64,000 bases of DNA from Ralstonia soli. GTDB taxonomy: Bacteria; Pseudomonadota; Gammaproteobacteria; Burkholderiales; Burkholderiaceae. Positions 46,981-55,340 of this stretch are shown here, piece after piece; positions within the stretch are counted from its first letter, which is position 1, and each line of letters starts with the position of its first letter. The position numbers were made by a program, and so were the translations under genes. The DNA is taken from contig NZ_JAMXHT010000011.1 of NCBI RefSeq assembly GCF_023955655.1, forward strand, positions 62,001 through 126,000, written 5' to 3'. The notes beneath the pieces are model-generated. The model was not told the origin of the DNA, ran no database searches, and worked only from the letters and a program-made list of their open reading frames with translations.

Positions 46981-47118
46981 ACGCCCGGCCTCCACGCCAG
47001 CAGGACACAGCGCAACCCCTGCGCGGCTTGCCCCGCAAATGTACGGTATGCGTCACGCAAAACAGGCGGCTGTGCCGTCTTTTTGAGCCCATGCGCGAGC
47101 GCCAAACGGTCGCGTCCC

Positions 47119-47538
47119 GAGTTCGGAGCGCGGCACGCGGACCTTTTGGCTCGGCAGGCCGAGCTCGGAGCCCGACACGCGGAGCCTTTTGCTCGGCAGG
47201 CCGAGCTCGGAGCTCGACACGCGGAGCCTTTTGCTTGGCAGGCCGAGCTCGGAGCTCGACACACGGCGCTTTTTGCTCGGCAGGCCGAGCTCGGAGCTCG
47301 ACACACGGAGCCTTTTGCTCGGCAAGCCGAGCTCGGAGCTCGACACACGGAGCCTTTTGCTCGGCAAGCCGAGCTCGGAGCTCGACACACGGCGCTTTTT
47401 GCTCGGCAGGCCGAGCTCGGAGCTCGACACACGGTGCTTTTTGCTCGGCAAGCCGAGCTCGGAGCTCGACACACGGTGCTTTCTGCTCGGAAGGCGGAGT
47501 TCAGAGCTCGACATCCGGCGCTTTCTACCTGGCGGTCG
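47119..47538. repeat. Minisatellite: ten 42-bp direct repeats
   Basis: Ten head-to-tail copies of a 42-bp unit occupy 420 bp, with breaks at 47161, 47203, 47245, 47287, 47329, 47371, 47413, 47455 and 47497. The central seven are nearly identical and the outer ones are diverged. Each junction carries the 10-bp palindrome CCGAGCTCGG followed by a further GAGCTC. Variation among copies falls mainly at unit positions 19, 23, 26 and 39. These spread over all three codon positions, so no frame shows coding constraint. There are no spacers, so this is not a CRISPR. Confidence 0.93.
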
Positions 47539-47945: not shown

Positions 47946-49904
47946 TCAGCCGGCGCTCACGCCGGAGGTCCGCTCATCGCGCGCGGCCTGGTAGCTGGTC
48001 AGCAGCGTTTCCAGCCGCTTGAAGTCCACCGGCTTGGTCAGGTGATCGGTAAAGCCCGCCTGGCGGCAGCGGGCGATGTCGTCTTCCATGCCGTAGCCCG
48101 TGATGGCGATTGACGGCGCGGCCTGCCGTTCGCCAAACACGTGCACCACATCCAGGCCGCTGCCGTCCGGCAGGCCGATATCGCTGATCAGCAGATCGAA
48201 CGTTCCCGACTCGGCGGCTTGCATCGCCGTGCGCGCGCCGTTGGCGACCGTGACGGTGTGGCCCAGGATCTGCAGCATCTGTGACATGGCTTCGGCGGTA
48301 TCAGCGTTGTCTTCCACCAGCAGCACATGCAGGCCCCCTCTGTGCTGTATGCGCGGCATGGGCGAGGGGGGCGGCGTCTCGGGCTGTGCCATCTCGGTGG
48401 CCAGCGGCAAGGTGAGCGTGAAGGTGGCGCCCTGGTGGCGGCCTGCGCTCTCGGCGATGAGCGACCCTTCGTGCTTCTGCACCAGTGCATAGGCAATCGC
48501 CAGGCCCAGCCCAAGCCCCCCAAAGCGTTGTGTGATGGATTCGTCAGCCTGTTCGAACGCCGAGAAGATGCGCGGCAGCGCGTCGGGTTCGATACCGATG
48601 CCGTTGTCCTTCACGGCCACCGCCACGGTGGCGGGGTTCGGGTTCCAGACGTGCACCTCGATGGCGCCGCCCTCGGGCGTGAATTTGACTGCGTTGCGCA
48701 CCAGGTTCCAGATCACTTGCTGGATGCGCGCGCCGTCGGCCAACAGCCGGCTGCGGCCCGCCTCGAAACGGGTCTTGAGCGCGAGACGCTTGATCTGCAT
48801 GTCGCTGCGCGACATCTCCAGCGTGCTCTCCAGCAGCGGATACAGGTCGACCGGCGCAAAGCTCACCGCCAGCTTGCCCCGCGCAATGCCGGTGATGTCG
48901 AGCAGGTCATCGATCAGGCGGGCTTCCAGTTCGGCATTGCGGCGCACGACCTCCAGCTGCGCGACCACGTAGGGCGGCAGGTCCTGGCGCAGTTCCAGCA
49001 GGTGGACGGCGGTCAGGATGGGGGTGAGCGGGGTGCGCAGTTCGTGCGAGAGCACGGCGAGGAAGTGGTCCTTGGCGTGGTTGGCCGTTTCGGCCTCTTC
49101 CTTGGCGCGGCGCAGGGCATCGGCGGCTATGCGTTCCTCGGTGGCGTCGCGCACGATCTTGGAGAAGCCGATCAACTGCCCCGCCTCGTTGTGGATGGCG
49201 GTGACGACGCTCGATGCATAGAACGGTGTGCCGTCCTTGCGTAGCATCCAGCGGTCGTCGGTCAGGCTGCCTTCGCGGCGCACGCGTTCGAGCTTGCGCT
49301 GGAAGTCGCCGGCTTCGCGCGCGGCCTGCGGGTACAGGATCTCGGCCGATTTGCCGAGGATGTCGTCGCGGCCATACCCCAGGATGCTGTGCGACGCTGC
49401 ATTCCAGGTGCGTACGATGCCCTGCGGGTCGAGCGAGAGCACGGCGTGCTCCTTGAGCGCGTTGATCAGCAGGCGGAAGTGCGTTTCCGTTTCACGCAGT
49501 GCGGCTTCGGCGGCAATGCGCTGGCGGCGTTCGGCGGCTTCGGCCAGCGCGCGCAGCAGCACCACGGGCAGGCGCTGCAGGCGCTGCTTGATGACGTAGT
49601 CAGTGGCGCCGCGCTTGAGCATGTCCACCGCGTGCTCCTCGCCCAGCGCACCTGACACGAAGATGAACGGCGTCTGCGGCGCCATGCGGCGCGCGATGTC
49701 GAGCGCCTCCGCCCCGGTGAACTGCGGCAGCATGTAATCGGCCAGGATGGCGTCGAAGGTGTGCGCGTTGAGCTGGGCGATGAAGTCGGTTTCGTTGTCG
49801 ACGAGGGTGGTGTCGGCGGGCAGGTTGGCGGTTTCAAGCCGCGCGCGCGTCAGCTCCGCATCGAGCAGATTGTCTTCGACCAGCAGCAGTTGCAGATTGG
49901 GCAT
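47946..49904 (-). CDS. Hybrid sensor kinase, REC-PAS-HisKA-HATPase-REC
   Basis: A 652-residue soluble kinase with no membrane helices. The N-terminal receiver has VEDN and Asp56 (ILADYMLP), and a PAS domain follows at about 140-260. The H box AVLSHELRTPL has His287. The N box is NLVRNAVKFTPEGG, the ATP lid has DNGIGI and GLGLGLAIA, and the C-terminal receiver has VEDN and SDIGLPDGSG. Third gene of an operon led by the phytochrome-like kinase; it follows the small regulator by 26 bp. Receivers at both ends suggest input from another kinase plus output to a phosphotransfer partner. Confidence 0.88.
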   Translation of the reverse strand: MPNLQLLLVEDNLLDAELTRARLETANLPADTTLVDNETDFIAQLNAHTFDAILADYMLPQFTGAEALDIARRMAPQTPFIFVSGALGEEHAVDMLKRGATDYVIKQRLQRLPVVLLRALAEAAERRQRIAAEAALRETETHFRLLINALKEHAVLSLDPQGIVRTWNAASHSILGYGRDDILGKSAEILYPQAAREAGDFQRKLERVRREGSLTDDRWMLRKDGTPFYASSVVTAIHNEAGQLIGFSKIVRDATEERIAADALRRAKEEAETANHAKDHFLAVLSHELRTPLTPILTAVHLLELRQDLPPYVVAQLEVVRRNAELEARLIDDLLDITGIARGKLAVSFAPVDLYPLLESTLEMSRSDMQIKRLALKTRFEAGRSRLLADGARIQQVIWNLVRNAVKFTPEGGAIEVHVWNPNPATVAVAVKDNGIGIEPDALPRIFSAFEQADESITQRFGGLGLGLAIAYALVQKHEGSLIAESAGRHQGATFTLTLPLATEMAQPETPPPSPMPRIQHRGGLHVLLVEDNADTAEAMSQMLQILGHTVTVANGARTAMQAAESGTFDLLISDIGLPDGSGLDVVHVFGERQAAPSIAITGYGMEDDIARCRQAGFTDHLTKPVDFKRLETLLTSYQAARDERTSGVSAG

Positions 49905-49930: not shown

Positions 49931-50419
49931 CTAGCTGGTCGTCTGCAGGGCCCGGCGTGCCCGCGTCGACCCTGGCGGCGGTTCGTTCAGCACCGCCCAG
50001 AACACGCCCAGATCGGCTATCGCGTCGACAAACGCGTGGAACTCCACCGGCTTGACCACATAGGCGTTGACGCCCAGGGCATAGCTGCGCAGCAGGTCGG
50101 TTTCTTCGCGCGACGAGGTGAGCATGACCACCGGCAGGCTCTTGAGCGTGGGCGTGGCGCGAATCTCGGCCAGCACCTCCAATCCATCGACCTTGGGCAG
50201 CTTCAGATCGAGCAGCACCACCGCCGGGTTGCCCGGCACACGCTGCGCGTAGAGGTTGCGCGCGTGCAGGTAGTCCAGCGCTTCGGCGCCGTCGCGGGTG
50301 ACGACCACATCGTTGGCAAGCTGGCTGCGCTCCAGCGCCAGCAGGGTCAGCTCGAGGTCGTTCGGGTTGTCTTCAACGAGCAGGATGGGTTTGAGCATGG
50401 TGACAATGGGCGTGGACAT
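49931..50419 (-). CDS. Single-domain response regulator, Rcp1-like
   Basis: A 162-residue stand-alone receiver. VEDNPNDLELTLLAL is typical of regulators paired with phytochromes. The phospho-acceptor is Asp71 in VVLLDLKLPKVDG, and Thr and Lys lie in MLTSS and YVVKPVEF. There is no output domain, so it probably relays phosphate or binds a partner. The ATG is 5 bp past the phytochrome-like stop, so translation is likely coupled. A second ATG at 50398 is possible. Confidence 0.9.
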   Translation of the reverse strand: MSTPIVTMLKPILLVEDNPNDLELTLLALERSQLANDVVVTRDGAEALDYLHARNLYAQRVPGNPAVVLLDLKLPKVDGLEVLAEIRATPTLKSLPVVMLTSSREETDLLRSYALGVNAYVVKPVEFHAFVDAIADLGVFWAVLNEPPPGSTRARRALQTTS

Positions 50420-50424
50420 GACGA

Positions 50425-52713
50425 TCACGCATCGCGGGTGGCGGGGGTACCGGCCCCGGCCGCGGATGCCTCTAGCGGGTCGGGCATGCGCGGCAGCGCG
50501 AAGTAGAACGTCGCGCCGTGGTCGAGCTTGCCTTCGGCCCAGGTGCGGCCGCCATGGCGATCGATGATGCGCCGGACATTGGCCAGGCCGATGCCGGTGC
50601 CCTCGAATTCGTCCATGCGATGCAGCCGCTGGAACACCCCGAACAGCTTGTTCACGTACTCCATCGAGAAGCCCACGCCGTTGTCGGCAATGCGCACGAT
50701 GGTTTCGGTGTCGGTCTGTTCGGCGTGGATCTGGATGCGCGCCGGATTCCGGTCGCGCGTGTACTTGACCGCATTGGAGAGCAGGTTGCGTACCGCCAGT
50801 AGCAGGAAGGTCGGGTCGGCGCGCACCACCGGTAGCGCGGCGATGTTCCATTCGATGTGGCGACGCCCCTGGTCGGTCGTCAGCTCGCGCACGATGCCGC
50901 GCACGAGCTGGGTGAGGTCGACGTCGGCCAGGTGCAGCGCGCCGCGGCCCATCTGCGAGAAGGTCAGCAGATCGTCCACCAGCTTGCCGGCAAAGCGCGA
51001 CGATTCCGAGATCGTCTGCAGGAAGTGCCGCCCGCGCGCCGAGACGTGATCGCCTTCCATCTCGTCGAGCAGTTCGGCATACCCGGCGATATGCCGCAGC
51101 GGCGCGCGCAAGTCGTGCGAGACGGAATACGAAAATGCCTCCAGCTCGTGATTGGCGCGGCGCAATTCGCTGGTCAGCTCCGCTGCCTCTTCGGCGCGGC
51201 GCAGCACGATGTTGAGCACGGCGTAGCGGAATTCCGCGGCGGTTTCCACTTCGCTTGTCCGCCATGGGCGTGATGTGTGCGCGATGTGCTCGTGCCAGTG
51301 GCGCGTGCGGCCGAGCACGGTGGTTGTGTCCTGCTGGCTGGCCAGGCCGGGCGCGTCGCCGGCCCAGCCCACGGTGTGCGGCGTTTCGGGGCGGAACCAC
51401 AGCACGTAGTGCCGATGCAGCTGCGAGACCTGCACTGCCAGCAGGCCGGTGGCCTGGGGCAGCAGCGCCGCGCCGTCGGGGTAGACGGCGGCCAGGCGGT
51501 CGGTGTGGAAAACCTCGCCGGGGCGCTCGTCGGCCAGCCATTCGGTCAGGCGCAGGATGCTCTCGGCGTCGGGCGCCGCACCGATGCGCACGCAATCGTC
51601 CTGGCGCACGATGGCCGCGCCGCTGGCCGAGGCGAAGCGCAGCAGATCGGCCGGCTGTTCGAGCAGGCCGTCGAGGAAGTGGTCGCGATCGGCCATCGCC
51701 GCCAAGAGGCGCACGAGGATGCGGCGCAACTCCAGCCGGTGGGCAATCTCGGCGCGGTCTTCCTTGGCTTCGATCTGCAGCGACAGGATCTGCGCCAGGT
51801 GCTCGCACGCCGTGCGTACCTCGAACGACAGCGAGCAGGGCGTGGCGTGGTGGCACGCCACCAGCCCCCACAACTCCCCGCGCACGGTGAGCGCCAGCGT
51901 GAGCGAGGCCATCGCGCCCATGCGGCGCATGGTTTCGCGCTGGGCATCGGAGGCCGCGCGCAAGGCCGCATACGACAGATCGGTCACGCGCCCCGTGGCG
52001 GGATGCTGCGGCGGCACCAGGCCGACGGGCGTGCTGTCGATATCCGCCACCAGGCGCAACGGGTTGCGGCTGTACAGGCTGCGCAGCACCGGCGTCAGGC
52101 TGGCGCCGGGCAGGTGGGTGCCGAACAGCGTGTCGTAGGCCGTGTCGCGCGCCTCGGCCAGCGCACGCAGGGAGCCATCGGTGTCGATCCGGTAGACGGT
52201 CACGCGGCCAAATTGGGTCAGGCGGCGGACTTCGCGCGCGGCCAGGTCGGTCAGCGTGTCAATGCTGCTCACCGCCTGCAGGCTGCCGACGAAGGTGCGC
52301 ACCAGGGGGTACATCGATGCGAAGGCGCCATCGGCGGCGTGCACGGCGGGTTCGAGTTCGAGGATCAGCACGCCCCGGTGCCGGTGCACAACGGCGTCAA
52401 GGGCGTGGCCTTGCGGCGTGTGCAGCGTGCCGAAGTACAGCGGGTGGTCGTCCACGCTCTGCGTCGCCAGGGCACGCTCCAGCGCCGCGCGCCCGACCGC
52501 GCCGATCACGCGGTCGACCGGCGCCTGCAGTGCGGCGGCGAGCGGCGTGCCCAGCGCGGCTTCCAGGTTTTCACTGGCCTGGTCGATGCGCAGTCCAGGC
52601 TCGGACAGGCACAGCAGCACGCCGCGCGATTGGATGGCGGCCTCGGTGGCTGTGTCAGGGCCGACGCCTGGCGCGGCGTGGGTGTCGGCGAGAAAGGGCG
52701 GATGCGAACTCAT
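50425..52713 (-). CDS. Phytochrome-like histidine kinase lacking bilin-site residues
   Basis: A 762-residue protein with PAS (about 20-125), GAF (140-315), PHY (325-505) and HisKA-HATPase (515-750) regions. The kinase is intact: VSHDLRAPLRH with His533, NLLSNAVKYT, DNGVGF and GTGIGLANV. The photosensory site is not. No Cys lies ahead of the IQPHG-like IQSRG, PASDIP is replaced by PGASLT (202-207), the conserved GAF His is Gln258, and the tongue PRxSF is replaced by LGRTRHW. Only the later His (ACHH, 288-289) remains. It probably binds no bilin, or binds something else. Confidence 0.85.
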   Translation of the reverse strand: MSSHPPFLADTHAAPGVGPDTATEAAIQSRGVLLCLSEPGLRIDQASENLEAALGTPLAAALQAPVDRVIGAVGRAALERALATQSVDDHPLYFGTLHTPQGHALDAVVHRHRGVLILELEPAVHAADGAFASMYPLVRTFVGSLQAVSSIDTLTDLAAREVRRLTQFGRVTVYRIDTDGSLRALAEARDTAYDTLFGTHLPGASLTPVLRSLYSRNPLRLVADIDSTPVGLVPPQHPATGRVTDLSYAALRAASDAQRETMRRMGAMASLTLALTVRGELWGLVACHHATPCSLSFEVRTACEHLAQILSLQIEAKEDRAEIAHRLELRRILVRLLAAMADRDHFLDGLLEQPADLLRFASASGAAIVRQDDCVRIGAAPDAESILRLTEWLADERPGEVFHTDRLAAVYPDGAALLPQATGLLAVQVSQLHRHYVLWFRPETPHTVGWAGDAPGLASQQDTTTVLGRTRHWHEHIAHTSRPWRTSEVETAAEFRYAVLNIVLRRAEEAAELTSELRRANHELEAFSYSVSHDLRAPLRHIAGYAELLDEMEGDHVSARGRHFLQTISESSRFAGKLVDDLLTFSQMGRGALHLADVDLTQLVRGIVRELTTDQGRRHIEWNIAALPVVRADPTFLLLAVRNLLSNAVKYTRDRNPARIQIHAEQTDTETIVRIADNGVGFSMEYVNKLFGVFQRLHRMDEFEGTGIGLANVRRIIDRHGGRTWAEGKLDHGATFYFALPRMPDPLEASAAGAGTPATRDA

Positions 52714-53007
52714 GGCTAGACAAAGAGAGGCGCTACGCCGTTGGCGGCATGCCGTACCTCGGCTGGGTAGTCAACCCATCCTTTCCTGCCGCAGCAATCG
52801 CCATGCCTGAGGGGATCGCGCTGGCGTCACCGCAACTGTGGGGGCCGTGCCAGCCGCTGCCCTATCCCCGCCGCGTGTAAAAAGTGACGGATAGACATTG
52901 CAAGCTTGTAACGCCTACCCGTACCCGGGTCGCTCCGCGTTTTGTTGCGATAAGTGCAGGAGTATCATCAGCGCCTTGCTCACACCACTCGCAGGGAAGA
53001 TTCAACT
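52714..53007. other. Divergent intergenic region
   Basis: This 294-bp gap between the phytochrome-like operon (minus) and the amino-acid importer operon (plus) must hold both promoters. No clear -10/-35 pair stands out. TATCAT near 52971 is a weak -10 candidate for the plus strand. No gene is seen. Confidence 0.4.
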
Positions 53008-53784
53008 ATGTCGATGAAGCGTCTCATGGCTGCAGTCGCTGTCCTGACCACCTTTGCCATGGCGCCGGGCGGCGCGTCGGCGGAGCCCACCTACACCGTG
53101 GGCGCGGGCGGCACGTATCGCCCGTTCGAGTTCGAAACGCCGCAGAAGGAACTGACGGGCTTCGACATCGATCTGATCAAGGCGATCGGCAAGGCTGGCG
53201 GCTTCAACGTCAAGCTGGTCAGCACGCCGTGGGAAGGCATCTTTGCCACGCTCAACCAGGGTGACCGCGACATCATCGTTTCCGGCATCACCATCACTGA
53301 CCAGCGCAAGCAGATGGTCGATTTTTCGGCGCCGTACTTTCCGGCCGGCCAGGTGATCATCACCGCGCCGAATGCCAAGATCGCGAGCCTGGCAGACCTC
53401 AAGAAGCGCCAGGTCGGCGTGGTGGCATCCAGCGCCGGTGACACCGCCGTCTCGGAAGAACTCGGCCGCACGAGCTCGGCCATCAAGCGCTTCGACAACA
53501 CGCCGCTGATGCTCGAAGAGCTGTATCGCGGCGGTGTCGACGCGGCCGTGGGCGATGTGGGCGTGATCAAGTTCTACGTCAAGAGCCACCCGGAAAAGCC
53601 GTTCAGCCTCGTCTCCGACGCGAAGTTCAAGCCGCAGTACTTCGGCATCGCGGTCAAGAAGGGCAACAAGGTCGTGCTCGACCAGATCAACACCGGCCTG
53701 AAGAAGGTTGTGGCCGACGGCACTTACGCCAAGATCTACAAGCACTGGTTCGACGACAACGTGCCCACGCTACCCCAACAATAA
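53008..53784 (+). CDS. Polar amino-acid ABC importer, binding protein
   Basis: A 258-residue family 3 periplasmic binding protein. The signal peptide MSMKRLMAAVAVLTTFAMAP is cleaved near ASA-EPT. The mature part has the family motifs GTYRPFEFE, LTGFDIDLIKAIGK, IVSGITITDQRKQMVDFSAPY and DAAVGDVGVIKFY. GGGAAGA precedes the ATG. It is followed by a hairpin and then the permease and ATPase genes. The exact amino acid cannot be read from sequence. Confidence 0.9.
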   Translation: MSMKRLMAAVAVLTTFAMAPGGASAEPTYTVGAGGTYRPFEFETPQKELTGFDIDLIKAIGKAGGFNVKLVSTPWEGIFATLNQGDRDIIVSGITITDQRKQMVDFSAPYFPAGQVIITAPNAKIASLADLKKRQVGVVASSAGDTAVSEELGRTSSAIKRFDNTPLMLEELYRGGVDAAVGDVGVIKFYVKSHPEKPFSLVSDAKFKPQYFGIAVKKGNKVVLDQINTGLKKVVADGTYAKIYKHWFDDNVPTLPQQ

Positions 53785-53824
53785 GCAGCAGTCAGCGCGA
53801 TTGCGCCGCCACGCGTTTCTCCCG

Positions 53825-53855
53825 GAGCCGGCACTGCCGGCTCGTTTCATTCTGT
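53825..53855 (+). terminator. Partial terminator or attenuator after the binding-protein gene
   Basis: A perfect 8-bp stem (53825-53832 with 53836-53843) with a 3-nt loop is followed by T-rich but broken sequence. It lies inside the operon between binding protein and permease, so it probably lowers expression of the distal genes rather than ending the transcript. Confidence 0.6.
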
Positions 53856-53881
53856 TGCTCCAATAAAAAAAGGTGGTCCCC

Positions 53882-54631
53882 ATGGGTGGGTTCCAGTGGA
53901 ACATCATTGGCGAGTATCTGCCGCTCTTCGTCGAGGGCACGCTGATGACGCTCAAGTGCACGGTGATCTGCGTGATCGCCGGCACCTTGCTCGGGCTGGT
54001 GCTCGGCGTTGGCCGGCTCGCCGAGGCGCGTCACGGCTTTTACAAGTACTTCCTGCGCTATGCGGTGCAGTATCCGGTGCGCTTTTACGTCAGCTTCTTT
54101 CGCGGCACGCCGCTGTTCGTGCAGATTCTGCTGATCCACTTTGCGCTGATGCCGGTGCTGATCAACCCCGCGGATGGCTGGCTCATCAGCGGTGAACTCG
54201 CGCGCGAGGTCCGGCAGCAATACGGCGCGTTCACGTCGGCGGTGCTGGCCATCTCGCTGAATGCGGGCGCGTATGTGTCGGAAATCTTCCGCGCCGGCAT
54301 CCAGTCGATCGATCGCGGCCAGGCCGAGGCGGCACGCTCGCTGGGCATGACCTACATGGAGACGCTGCGCCGCGTGGTGCTGCCGCAGGCGTTTCGCCGC
54401 ATGCTGCCGCCGCTGGGCAACAACGCCATCGCCATCGTCAAGGATTCGTCGCTGGCCTCGGCCATCGGCCTGGCGGAACTCGCCTATGCCGCACGCACCG
54501 TGTCGGGTGCGTATGCGCGCTACTGGGAGCCGTATCTGACAATCTCGCTCATCTACTGGGCAATCACGCTGGTCTTGTCGGCCGGGGTTCAATATCTGGA
54601 AGCGAGGTACGGCAAGAATGATCGTCGTTAA
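53882..54631 (+). CDS. Polar amino-acid ABC importer, permease
   Basis: A 249-residue HisM/GlnP-family permease. N-terminal [18 protein letters not shown] is the typical first helix, [17 protein letters not shown] is the family signature, and the EAA loop is [24 protein letters not shown]. The ATG at 53882 has AGGTGG 5 nt upstream; the GTG at 53873 lies inside that site. Its end overlaps the ATPase gene by 14 bp. Confidence 0.93.
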
Positions 54632-55340
54632 CAACCTGCAGAAGCAGTACGGCAATACGAACGTGCTGCGCGGCATCACCTGCCGCATCGAAGAGCGCGA
54701 AGTGGTGTGCGTGATCGGCCCGTCGGGCTCGGGCAAGAGCACGTTCCTGCGCTGCCTGAACGGGCTGGAAACCGTTTCGGGCGGCGAGGTACTGGTCAAC
54801 GGCTTTCATGTGGAAGACCCGAAGACCGACCTGAACAAGATGCGCGCCAGCGTGGGCATGGTGTTCCAGCGCTTCAACCTGTTCGCGCACATGTCGGTGC
54901 TCGACAACCTGGTGCTCGCGCCGATGCAGGTGCGCCGCATGAAGCGCGACGAGGCCGTCACGGTGGCCGAGCAACTGCTGCGCAAGGTCGGCCTGCTCGA
55001 CAAGATCGATGCACACCCGAGCCAGCTCTCGGGTGGTCAGCAGCAGCGCGTGGCGATTGCCCGCGCGCTGGCGATGTCGCCGACCGTGATGCTCTTCGAC
55101 GAACCCACCTCTGCGCTGGACCCGGAACTCGTCGGCGAAGTGCTGGAGGTGATGAAGTCGCTGGCCGAAGAGGGCATGACGATGGTGGTCGTCACGCACG
55201 AAATGGCGTTCGCGCGGGAAGTATCGGACCGCGTGTTCTTCATCGACCAGGGCGTGATCATGGAAGAGGGCGCGCCGGAGCAGATCTTCTCTGCGCCAAA
55301 GCACGAACGTACGCGCGAGTTTCTGCGCAAGGTGCTGTAG
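54618..55340 (+). CDS. Polar amino-acid ABC importer, ATPase
   Basis: A 240-residue GlnQ/HisP-type ATPase. Walker A is [19 protein letters not shown], the Q loop is [11 protein letters not shown], the signature is [15 protein letters not shown], Walker B is [14 protein letters not shown], and the switch His is in VVTHEMAFA. It overlaps the permease gene and is followed 10 bp later by an MFS gene in the same direction. Confidence 0.95.

What the first reader, a model, noticed from the sequence alone, without database searches (positions are those of the whole stretch)
50425..52713. Phytochrome-like kinase that has lost its bilin-binding and photosensory residues
The PAS-GAF-PHY-kinase layout is complete and the kinase motifs are intact. 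The photosensory core is systematically eroded: no Cys ahead of the IQSRG segment (usually IQPHG), PGASLT in place of PASDIP, Gln258 in place of the conserved GAF His, no Cys at the alternative GAF attachment site, and LGRTRHW in place of the PRxSF tongue. Loss at every chromophore-linked site with the kinase conserved suggests that the module was re-used for a non-light signal or for protein-protein control.
Basis: partly seen in the sequence, partly recalled or inferred. Interest (0 to 1): 0.75.

Follow-up and report, generated by a model that had tools for sequence, protein, structure and literature searches.

The report
Light-blind phytochrome kinase of Ralstonia
Several related Ralstonia species keep a red-light receptor kinase whose light-absorbing pocket has been lost together with the gene that makes its pigment, while its kinase and partner genes stay under selection, so it probably signals without light.

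Summary
The 762-aa ORF at 50425-52713 (-) is a complete PAS-GAF-PHY-HisKA-HATPase protein with intact kinase boxes. It lacks the biliverdin Cys, the IQPHG His, the PASDIP Asp, GAF His260 and Tyr263, and the PRxSF tongue (numbering from Deinococcus BphP, recalled).

It is shared: 12 of 16 Ralstonia genomes carry it, all blind, against 1 of 115 other Burkholderiaceae phytochromes examined. That one (L139) is a second, independent case. Heme oxygenase (BphO), beside bphP in operonic relatives, was found in 0 of 16 Ralstonia genomes but in 87 of 91 other phytochrome-bearing genomes. The rest of the operon (bphP, receiver, hybrid kinase) is kept all or none: 12 with all, 4 with none.

Median dN/dS is 0.12-0.20 in the sensor and 0.06 in the kinase, so it is not a pseudogene; former pocket sites have lost their ancestral constraint.

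Best reading: a light-independent histidine kinase whose sensory core serves as dimer scaffold and perhaps takes a non-light input. Loss of bilin binding is inferred, not assayed. The kind is known (photoinactive fungal FphB; R. palustris BphP4, recalled). New here: fixation across 12 species-level genomes, joint loss of bphO, and recurrence.

The parts
50425..52713 (-). bphP-like ORF, 762 aa: photoinactive phytochrome histidine kinase
   Evidence: 12 distinct Ralstonia-clade sequences aligned
52345..52641 (-). PAS_2 domain (residues 25-123), no N-terminal Cys
52621..52635 (-). IQSRG in place of IQPHG
   Evidence: R30 in 12 of 12 Ralstonia-clade, H in 112 of 115 others (113 counting L139, whose slice was cut short)
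51760..52296 (-). GAF domain (about residues 140-318)
   Evidence: 151-315; limits widened by hand
52093..52110 (-). PGASLT in place of PASDIP (Asp lost)
   Evidence: D in 114 of 115 others, 1 of 12 Ralstonia-clade (L015)
51940..51942 (-). Gln258 codon in place of GAF His260
   Evidence: Q in 12 of 12 Ralstonia-clade, H in 114 of 115 others
51187..51741 (-). PHY domain (about residues 325-509)
   Evidence: 330-507; limits widened by hand
51304..51318 (-). VLGRT in place of the PRxSF tongue motif
50944..51141 (-). HisKA domain, phospho-acceptor H533, H+1 Asp, H+4 Ala
50488..50817 (-). HATPase_c domain with N, G1, F, G2 boxes
49931..50419 (-). single-domain receiver (response regulator); from this ATG it starts 5 nt after the bphP stop
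47946..49904 (-). hybrid kinase with two receivers, PAS, HisKA and HATPase_c (order REC-PAS-HK-REC by eye), third gene of the operon
52714..53001 (.). upstream gap where bphO stands in operonic relatives; no remnant found
   Evidence: (no tblastn hit at 1e-6 in window or Ralstonia loci)

Best explanation
A bacteriophytochrome that went blind once, before the sampled Ralstonia species split. The ancestor had the bphO-bphP-receiver-hybrid kinase operon still seen in relatives; bphO was lost and the biliverdin pocket decayed. The protein now works as a light-independent histidine kinase: the PAS-GAF-PHY core keeps its fold as dimer scaffold and signalling helix, the kinase should sit near the apo/dark state, and phosphate passes to the adjacent receiver and possibly to the hybrid kinase. 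Shown: residue losses, BphO not found, one clade, purifying selection, operon conservation. Inferred: no bilin binding, kinase activity, partner identity, apo-like activity, order of events.
For: Cys, IQPHG His, Asp, GAF His, Tyr263 and tongue are lost in 12 of 12 Ralstonia-clade sequences (Asp in 11; L015 keeps it) and kept in 112-114 of 115 others. No heme oxygenase in 16 of 16 Ralstonia genomes by Pfam model or two BphO proteins (one 47-aa match, E 0.0024, in G014 discounted). One clade, SH-aLRT 100, on the longest inner branch of the tree. Median dN/dS PAS 0.16, GAF 0.12, PHY 0.20, HK 0.06, receiver 0.03. bphP, receiver and hybrid kinase occur together in 12 of 16 genomes, none in 4 (G013 has only a 41%-identical receiver). 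H box with H+1 Asp identical in 12 of 12. PMC8292422 (passages): apo-DrBphP was light-unresponsive with activity like its Pr state; an acid at H+1 supports kinase activity; the kinase Agp1 has Ala at H+4, as here.
Against: No biochemistry. Y214, R220, R252, S255 and H288 are kept in 12 of 12, so non-covalent tetrapyrrole binding is not excluded by sequence, and Cys loss alone does not abolish biliverdin binding in other phytochromes (recalled). Absolute dN/dS is higher in the sighted relatives than in Ralstonia, so relaxation rests on ratios within each set, and it shows in GAF and weakly in PHY; for PAS the two measures disagree. The AlphaFold model failed (mean pLDDT 39.6), so pocket shape is untested. 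Two genomes with phytochromes that keep Cys, Asp and His have no detected BphO (G127, G201), so its absence alone proves nothing.
Confidence: 0.66

Rival explanations
1. Re-tooled sensor: the core senses another signal, for example thiol redox through lineage-specific cysteines or a small anionic ligand in the Arg-lined remnant pocket.
For: C374 is in 12 of 12 Ralstonia-clade and 0 of 115 other sequences; C35 in 12 of 12 against 16 of 115; C293 in 11 of 12 against 0 of 115. Cys in the core number 4-6, above the mean of relatives (3.6). Precedent: RpBphP4, light to redox (title in a reference list; content recalled).
Against: The Cys total lies inside the range of relatives (2-9), and lineage-specific fixed residues are no denser in the core (19 of 485) than in the kinase (9 of 229). 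Former pocket sites vary more than the rest of GAF (0.36 against 0.25 bits, 11 sequences, difference not tested), so no new ligand site is visible there.
Confidence: 0.22
2. Still a photoreceptor with non-covalent biliverdin taken from outside.
For: R220, R252, S255, Y214 and H288 kept in 12 of 12.
Against: Joint loss of His, Tyr, most of PASDIP and the tongue, no BphO found in the genus, and variability of the pocket within the genus.
Confidence: 0.05
3. Decaying gene on its way to loss.
For: Four Ralstonia genomes lack the whole operon. The sensor evolves faster than the kinase, but this also holds in sighted relatives.
Against: Open frame in 12 of 12; dN/dS 0.06-0.20, far below 1; operon kept all or none.
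Confidence: 0.07

Closest known systems
Bacteriophytochrome histidine kinase (BphP) of Burkholderiaceae, operonic type (bphO-bphP-receiver-hybrid kinase)
   Same: Same domains, about 48-54% identity; of six such loci examined all have the hybrid kinase and five the receiver
   Different: Those keep Cys, IQPHG, PASDIP, His and PRxSF (as counts) and bphO beside bphP
FphB of Aspergillus fumigatus (PMC12607886, passages seen)
   Same: Phytochrome lacking the Cys and GAF/PHY motifs; measured to be photoinactive; kinase kept
   Different: Fungal hybrid kinase that forms heterodimers with a photoactive paralogue; no second phytochrome was found in the window's genome
RpBphP4 of Rhodopseudomonas palustris (Vuillet 2007; title seen, paper not held, content recalled)
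   Same: Bacterial phytochrome that lost bilin binding, kinase kept
   Different: Strain-level loss in one species with redox sensing shown (recalled); here across a genus, no new signal shown
L139/L147 in G170 (same family)
   Same: No Cys, Asp to Glu, His to Gln, tongue lost, receiver kept, no BphO found
   Different: Separate branch of the tree, seen in one genome, IQPHG kept

Membership tests
Phytochrome superfamily (by descent) | PAS_2-GAF-PHY core | tested here: met
   Pfam hits above cut-off; solved phytochromes to E 9.2e-111
Bacteriophytochrome photoreceptor | N-terminal biliverdin Cys upstream of IQPHG | tested here: not met
   0 of 12 Ralstonia-clade, 114 of 114 scorable others; the unscorable one, L139, has none
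Bacteriophytochrome photoreceptor | PASDIP Asp and GAF His | tested here: not met
   window S205 and Q258; Asp kept in L015 only, His in 0 of 12
Bacteriophytochrome photoreceptor | PRxSF tongue | tested here: not met
   0 of 12; PR..F in 112 of 115 others
Bacteriophytochrome photoreceptor | biliverdin supply (BphO) in the genome | tested here: not met
   0 of 16 Ralstonia genomes, (47-aa match in G014 discounted)
Bacteriophytochrome photoreceptor | bilin binding and photoconversion | not testable with these tools
   needs purified protein
HisKA histidine kinase | H, N, G1, F, G2 boxes | tested here: met
Photoinactive (blind) phytochrome kinase | phytochrome descent, chromophore residues lost, kinase boxes kept | tested here: met
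Photoinactive (blind) phytochrome kinase | measured lack of red absorbance | not testable with these tools
   needs purified protein
RpBphP4-type redox-sensing phytochrome | redox control of kinase | not testable with these tools
   C374 and C35 are candidates only

The most novel reading that the evidence does not exclude
Ralstonia converted a red-light receptor into a sensor of another cue (thiol redox through C374/C35, or an anionic ligand in the Arg-lined remnant pocket), fixed across the genus where the operon is kept, and phytochromes of this family are repeatedly re-tooled in this way once bphO is lost.
Probability: 0.22. Interest if true: 0.65.

Novelty: new member of a known kind. Interest (0 to 1): 0.42.

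Why it matters
It offers a natural series for asking what a phytochrome core does without pigment: a blind clade with a partly decayed member (L015 keeps the Asp), an independent blind case (L139), and sighted relatives with the same operon. It also warns that annotation as bacteriophytochrome does not imply light sensing in Ralstonia.

Tried and rejected
Structure prediction gave mean pLDDT 39.6 with only 9 close sequences; no fold search was run and nothing rests on it. Judging BphO by Pfam alone (81 of 91) was too strict: two BphO protein searches found it in 6 of the 10 misses. A general excess of cysteines or of fixed new residues in the core was looked for and not found. Of 25 pocket sites named, 21 passed the conservation filter; three that failed were tongue sites that I had set two residues off, so the true tongue columns were counted as non-pocket, which works against the test. 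Literature searches turned up no blind Ralstonia phytochrome in the rows listed: (open-licence library only; some searches listed 25 of 239, 25 of 41 and 15 of 25 papers).

Full report
What is there. The ORF 50425-52713 (-) encodes 762 residues with PAS_2, GAF, PHY, HisKA and HATPase_c domains, each above its Pfam cut-off. Solved phytochromes match over residues 26-744 (E 9.2e-111). It is the only phytochrome found in the genome: the other 22 of 23 matches cover the kinase part alone. The receiver starts 5 nt after the bphP stop and the hybrid kinase follows, on the same strand.

Who else has it. In the genus, 12 of 16 genomes carry it: the window's own, ten at 84-86% identity and one at 76%. 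Named copies include Ralstonia pickettii. The four genomes without it also lack the hybrid kinase and a close receiver (G013 has a 41%-identical receiver). R. pseudosolanacearum GMI1000 is reported to have a LOV protein as the only photoreceptor detected (PMC8282871, passages). In the family, 105 of 398 genomes match at 1e-60: 12 Ralstonia, 2 with kinase-only matches (G032, G051), and 91 with phytochromes or parts of them.

Residues. I aligned 12 Ralstonia-clade sequences with 115 others. Nine match rows were not fetched because they were fragments, frames with stops, or kinase-only (G296, G306, G166, G226 twice, G184:C2, G214:C410, G051, G032). Position names come from Deinococcus BphP and are recalled. 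Upstream Cys: 0 of 12 against 114 of 114 scorable. IQPHG His: 0 of 12 against 112 of 115. Asp207: 1 of 12 (L015) against 114 of 115. His260: 0 of 12 against 114 of 115. Tyr263: 0 of 12 against 113 of 115. PR..F tongue: 0 of 12 against 112 of 115. Kept in 12 of 12: Y214, R220, R252, S255, H288. The one unscorable sequence is L139, which my slicing cut short; its full frame has IQPHG and no Cys in the 12 residues before it.

A second case. L139, in G170, is the one other sequence without Asp and His. It also lacks the Cys and the tongue motif, no BphO was found in its genome, and it keeps its kinase and a receiver. Among 144 genomes of its genus the nearest relatives are 67-68% identical. Of the seven nearest (L149-L155), FPA[AT]DIP is present in 7 and the Cys in 6; the Cys region of L154, whose frame has a stop, was not readable. 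On the tree it sits far from Ralstonia, so blindness arose at least twice in the family. That call read these motifs by simple patterns, and I did not align these seven.

Pigment supply. The Pfam heme oxygenase model finds 0 of 16 Ralstonia genomes and 81 of the 91 other phytochrome genomes. Two BphO proteins searched against the 10 misses, the 16 Ralstonia genomes and one control (27 genomes) add G031, G337, G342, G271, G104 and G386, two of them as partial pieces at contig ends (G271, G386), giving 87 of 91. G306 has a copy with stops; G127, G201 and the blind G170 have none. Ralstonia stays at 0 of 16 apart from a 47-aa match in G014 (E 0.0024), which I discount. In operonic relatives bphO lies directly beside bphP (for example G115); in some other relatives it lies 2-3 kb away (for example G159, G035). 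No remnant is found in the window or in the Ralstonia loci at 1e-6.

Selection. Within 11 Ralstonia sequences (55 pairs, Nei-Gojobori) median dN/dS is 0.16 PAS, 0.12 GAF, 0.20 PHY, 0.06 HK, 0.03 receiver. In 18 sighted relatives (17 of one genus, plus L042) it is 0.35, 0.20, 0.31, 0.14, 0.10 at mean dS 0.7-0.8. The absolute values are thus higher in relatives, so I compare domains within each set: dN relative to HK is 2.5 for GAF in Ralstonia against 1.2 in relatives, 2.9 against 2.0 for PHY, 3.0 against 2.5 for PAS. Fixed-tree branch lengths within each clade agree for GAF (2.8 against 1.5) and weakly for PHY (2.5 against 2.1) but not for PAS (2.1 against 2.7); the L139 GAF tip is 0.51 against 0.07-0.11 in its sisters. 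Among columns at least 97% conserved in 35 relatives, 12 of 21 pocket columns changed, 19 of 99 other core columns, 2 of 79 kinase columns. Entropy at GAF pocket sites is 0.36 bits against 0.25 for the rest of GAF in Ralstonia, and 0.08 against 0.97 in relatives. The pocket constraint is gone and the protein is still constrained.

Origin. All 12 form one clade (SH-aLRT 100) on a branch of 1.1 changes per column, the longest inner branch (56 sequences, quick search, midpoint root for drawing). Of six loci with the hybrid kinase (L050, L057, L063-L066; 55-63% identity), five have the receiver (71-79%). L015 shows a partial state: Cys and His gone, Asp kept.

How it probably works. The H+1 residue is Asp and H+4 is Ala, as in the kinase Agp1; apo-DrBphP was light-unresponsive with activity like its Pr state (PMC8292422, passages). 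I therefore expect a kinase-competent, light-independent enzyme feeding the adjacent receiver and perhaps the hybrid kinase. Whether a new cue regulates it is open. C374 (12 of 12 against 0 of 115) is the best candidate residue for a redox role, but fixed new residues are no denser in the core (19 of 485) than in the kinase (9 of 229).

Known or new. Photoinactive phytochrome kinases are known: FphB of A. [quoted passage not shown] palustris BphP4 (Vuillet 2007; not held; title in a reference list; content recalled). This is a new member of that kind, with fixation across a genus, joint loss of bphO and a second origin as additions.

Noticed in passing
window 47117-47524: Tandem array of a 42-bp unit, 9.7 copies, 92% matches, between the hybrid kinase and a hemA-like gene (gene name by eye).
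   Followed up: no
L147 5580-8249 (-), G170: Second, independent blind phytochrome with a linked receiver and no BphO found in its genome.
   Followed up: partly
L056, G127: Phytochrome with Cys and His kept but Tyr176 to His, Tyr263 to Ser, a shortened loop before the tongue, and no BphO found: possibly an early stage of blinding.
   Followed up: no
G306:C36:24020-24619: BphO frame with two stops beside a partial phytochrome frame in a 3.9-Mb genome of 330 contigs: possible decay of the whole system.
   Followed up: no
window 52954-55340: Divergent genes that look like an amino-acid ABC transporter (binding protein, permease, ATPase) directly upstream of bphP, where bphO stands in operonic relatives (names by eye).
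   Followed up: no
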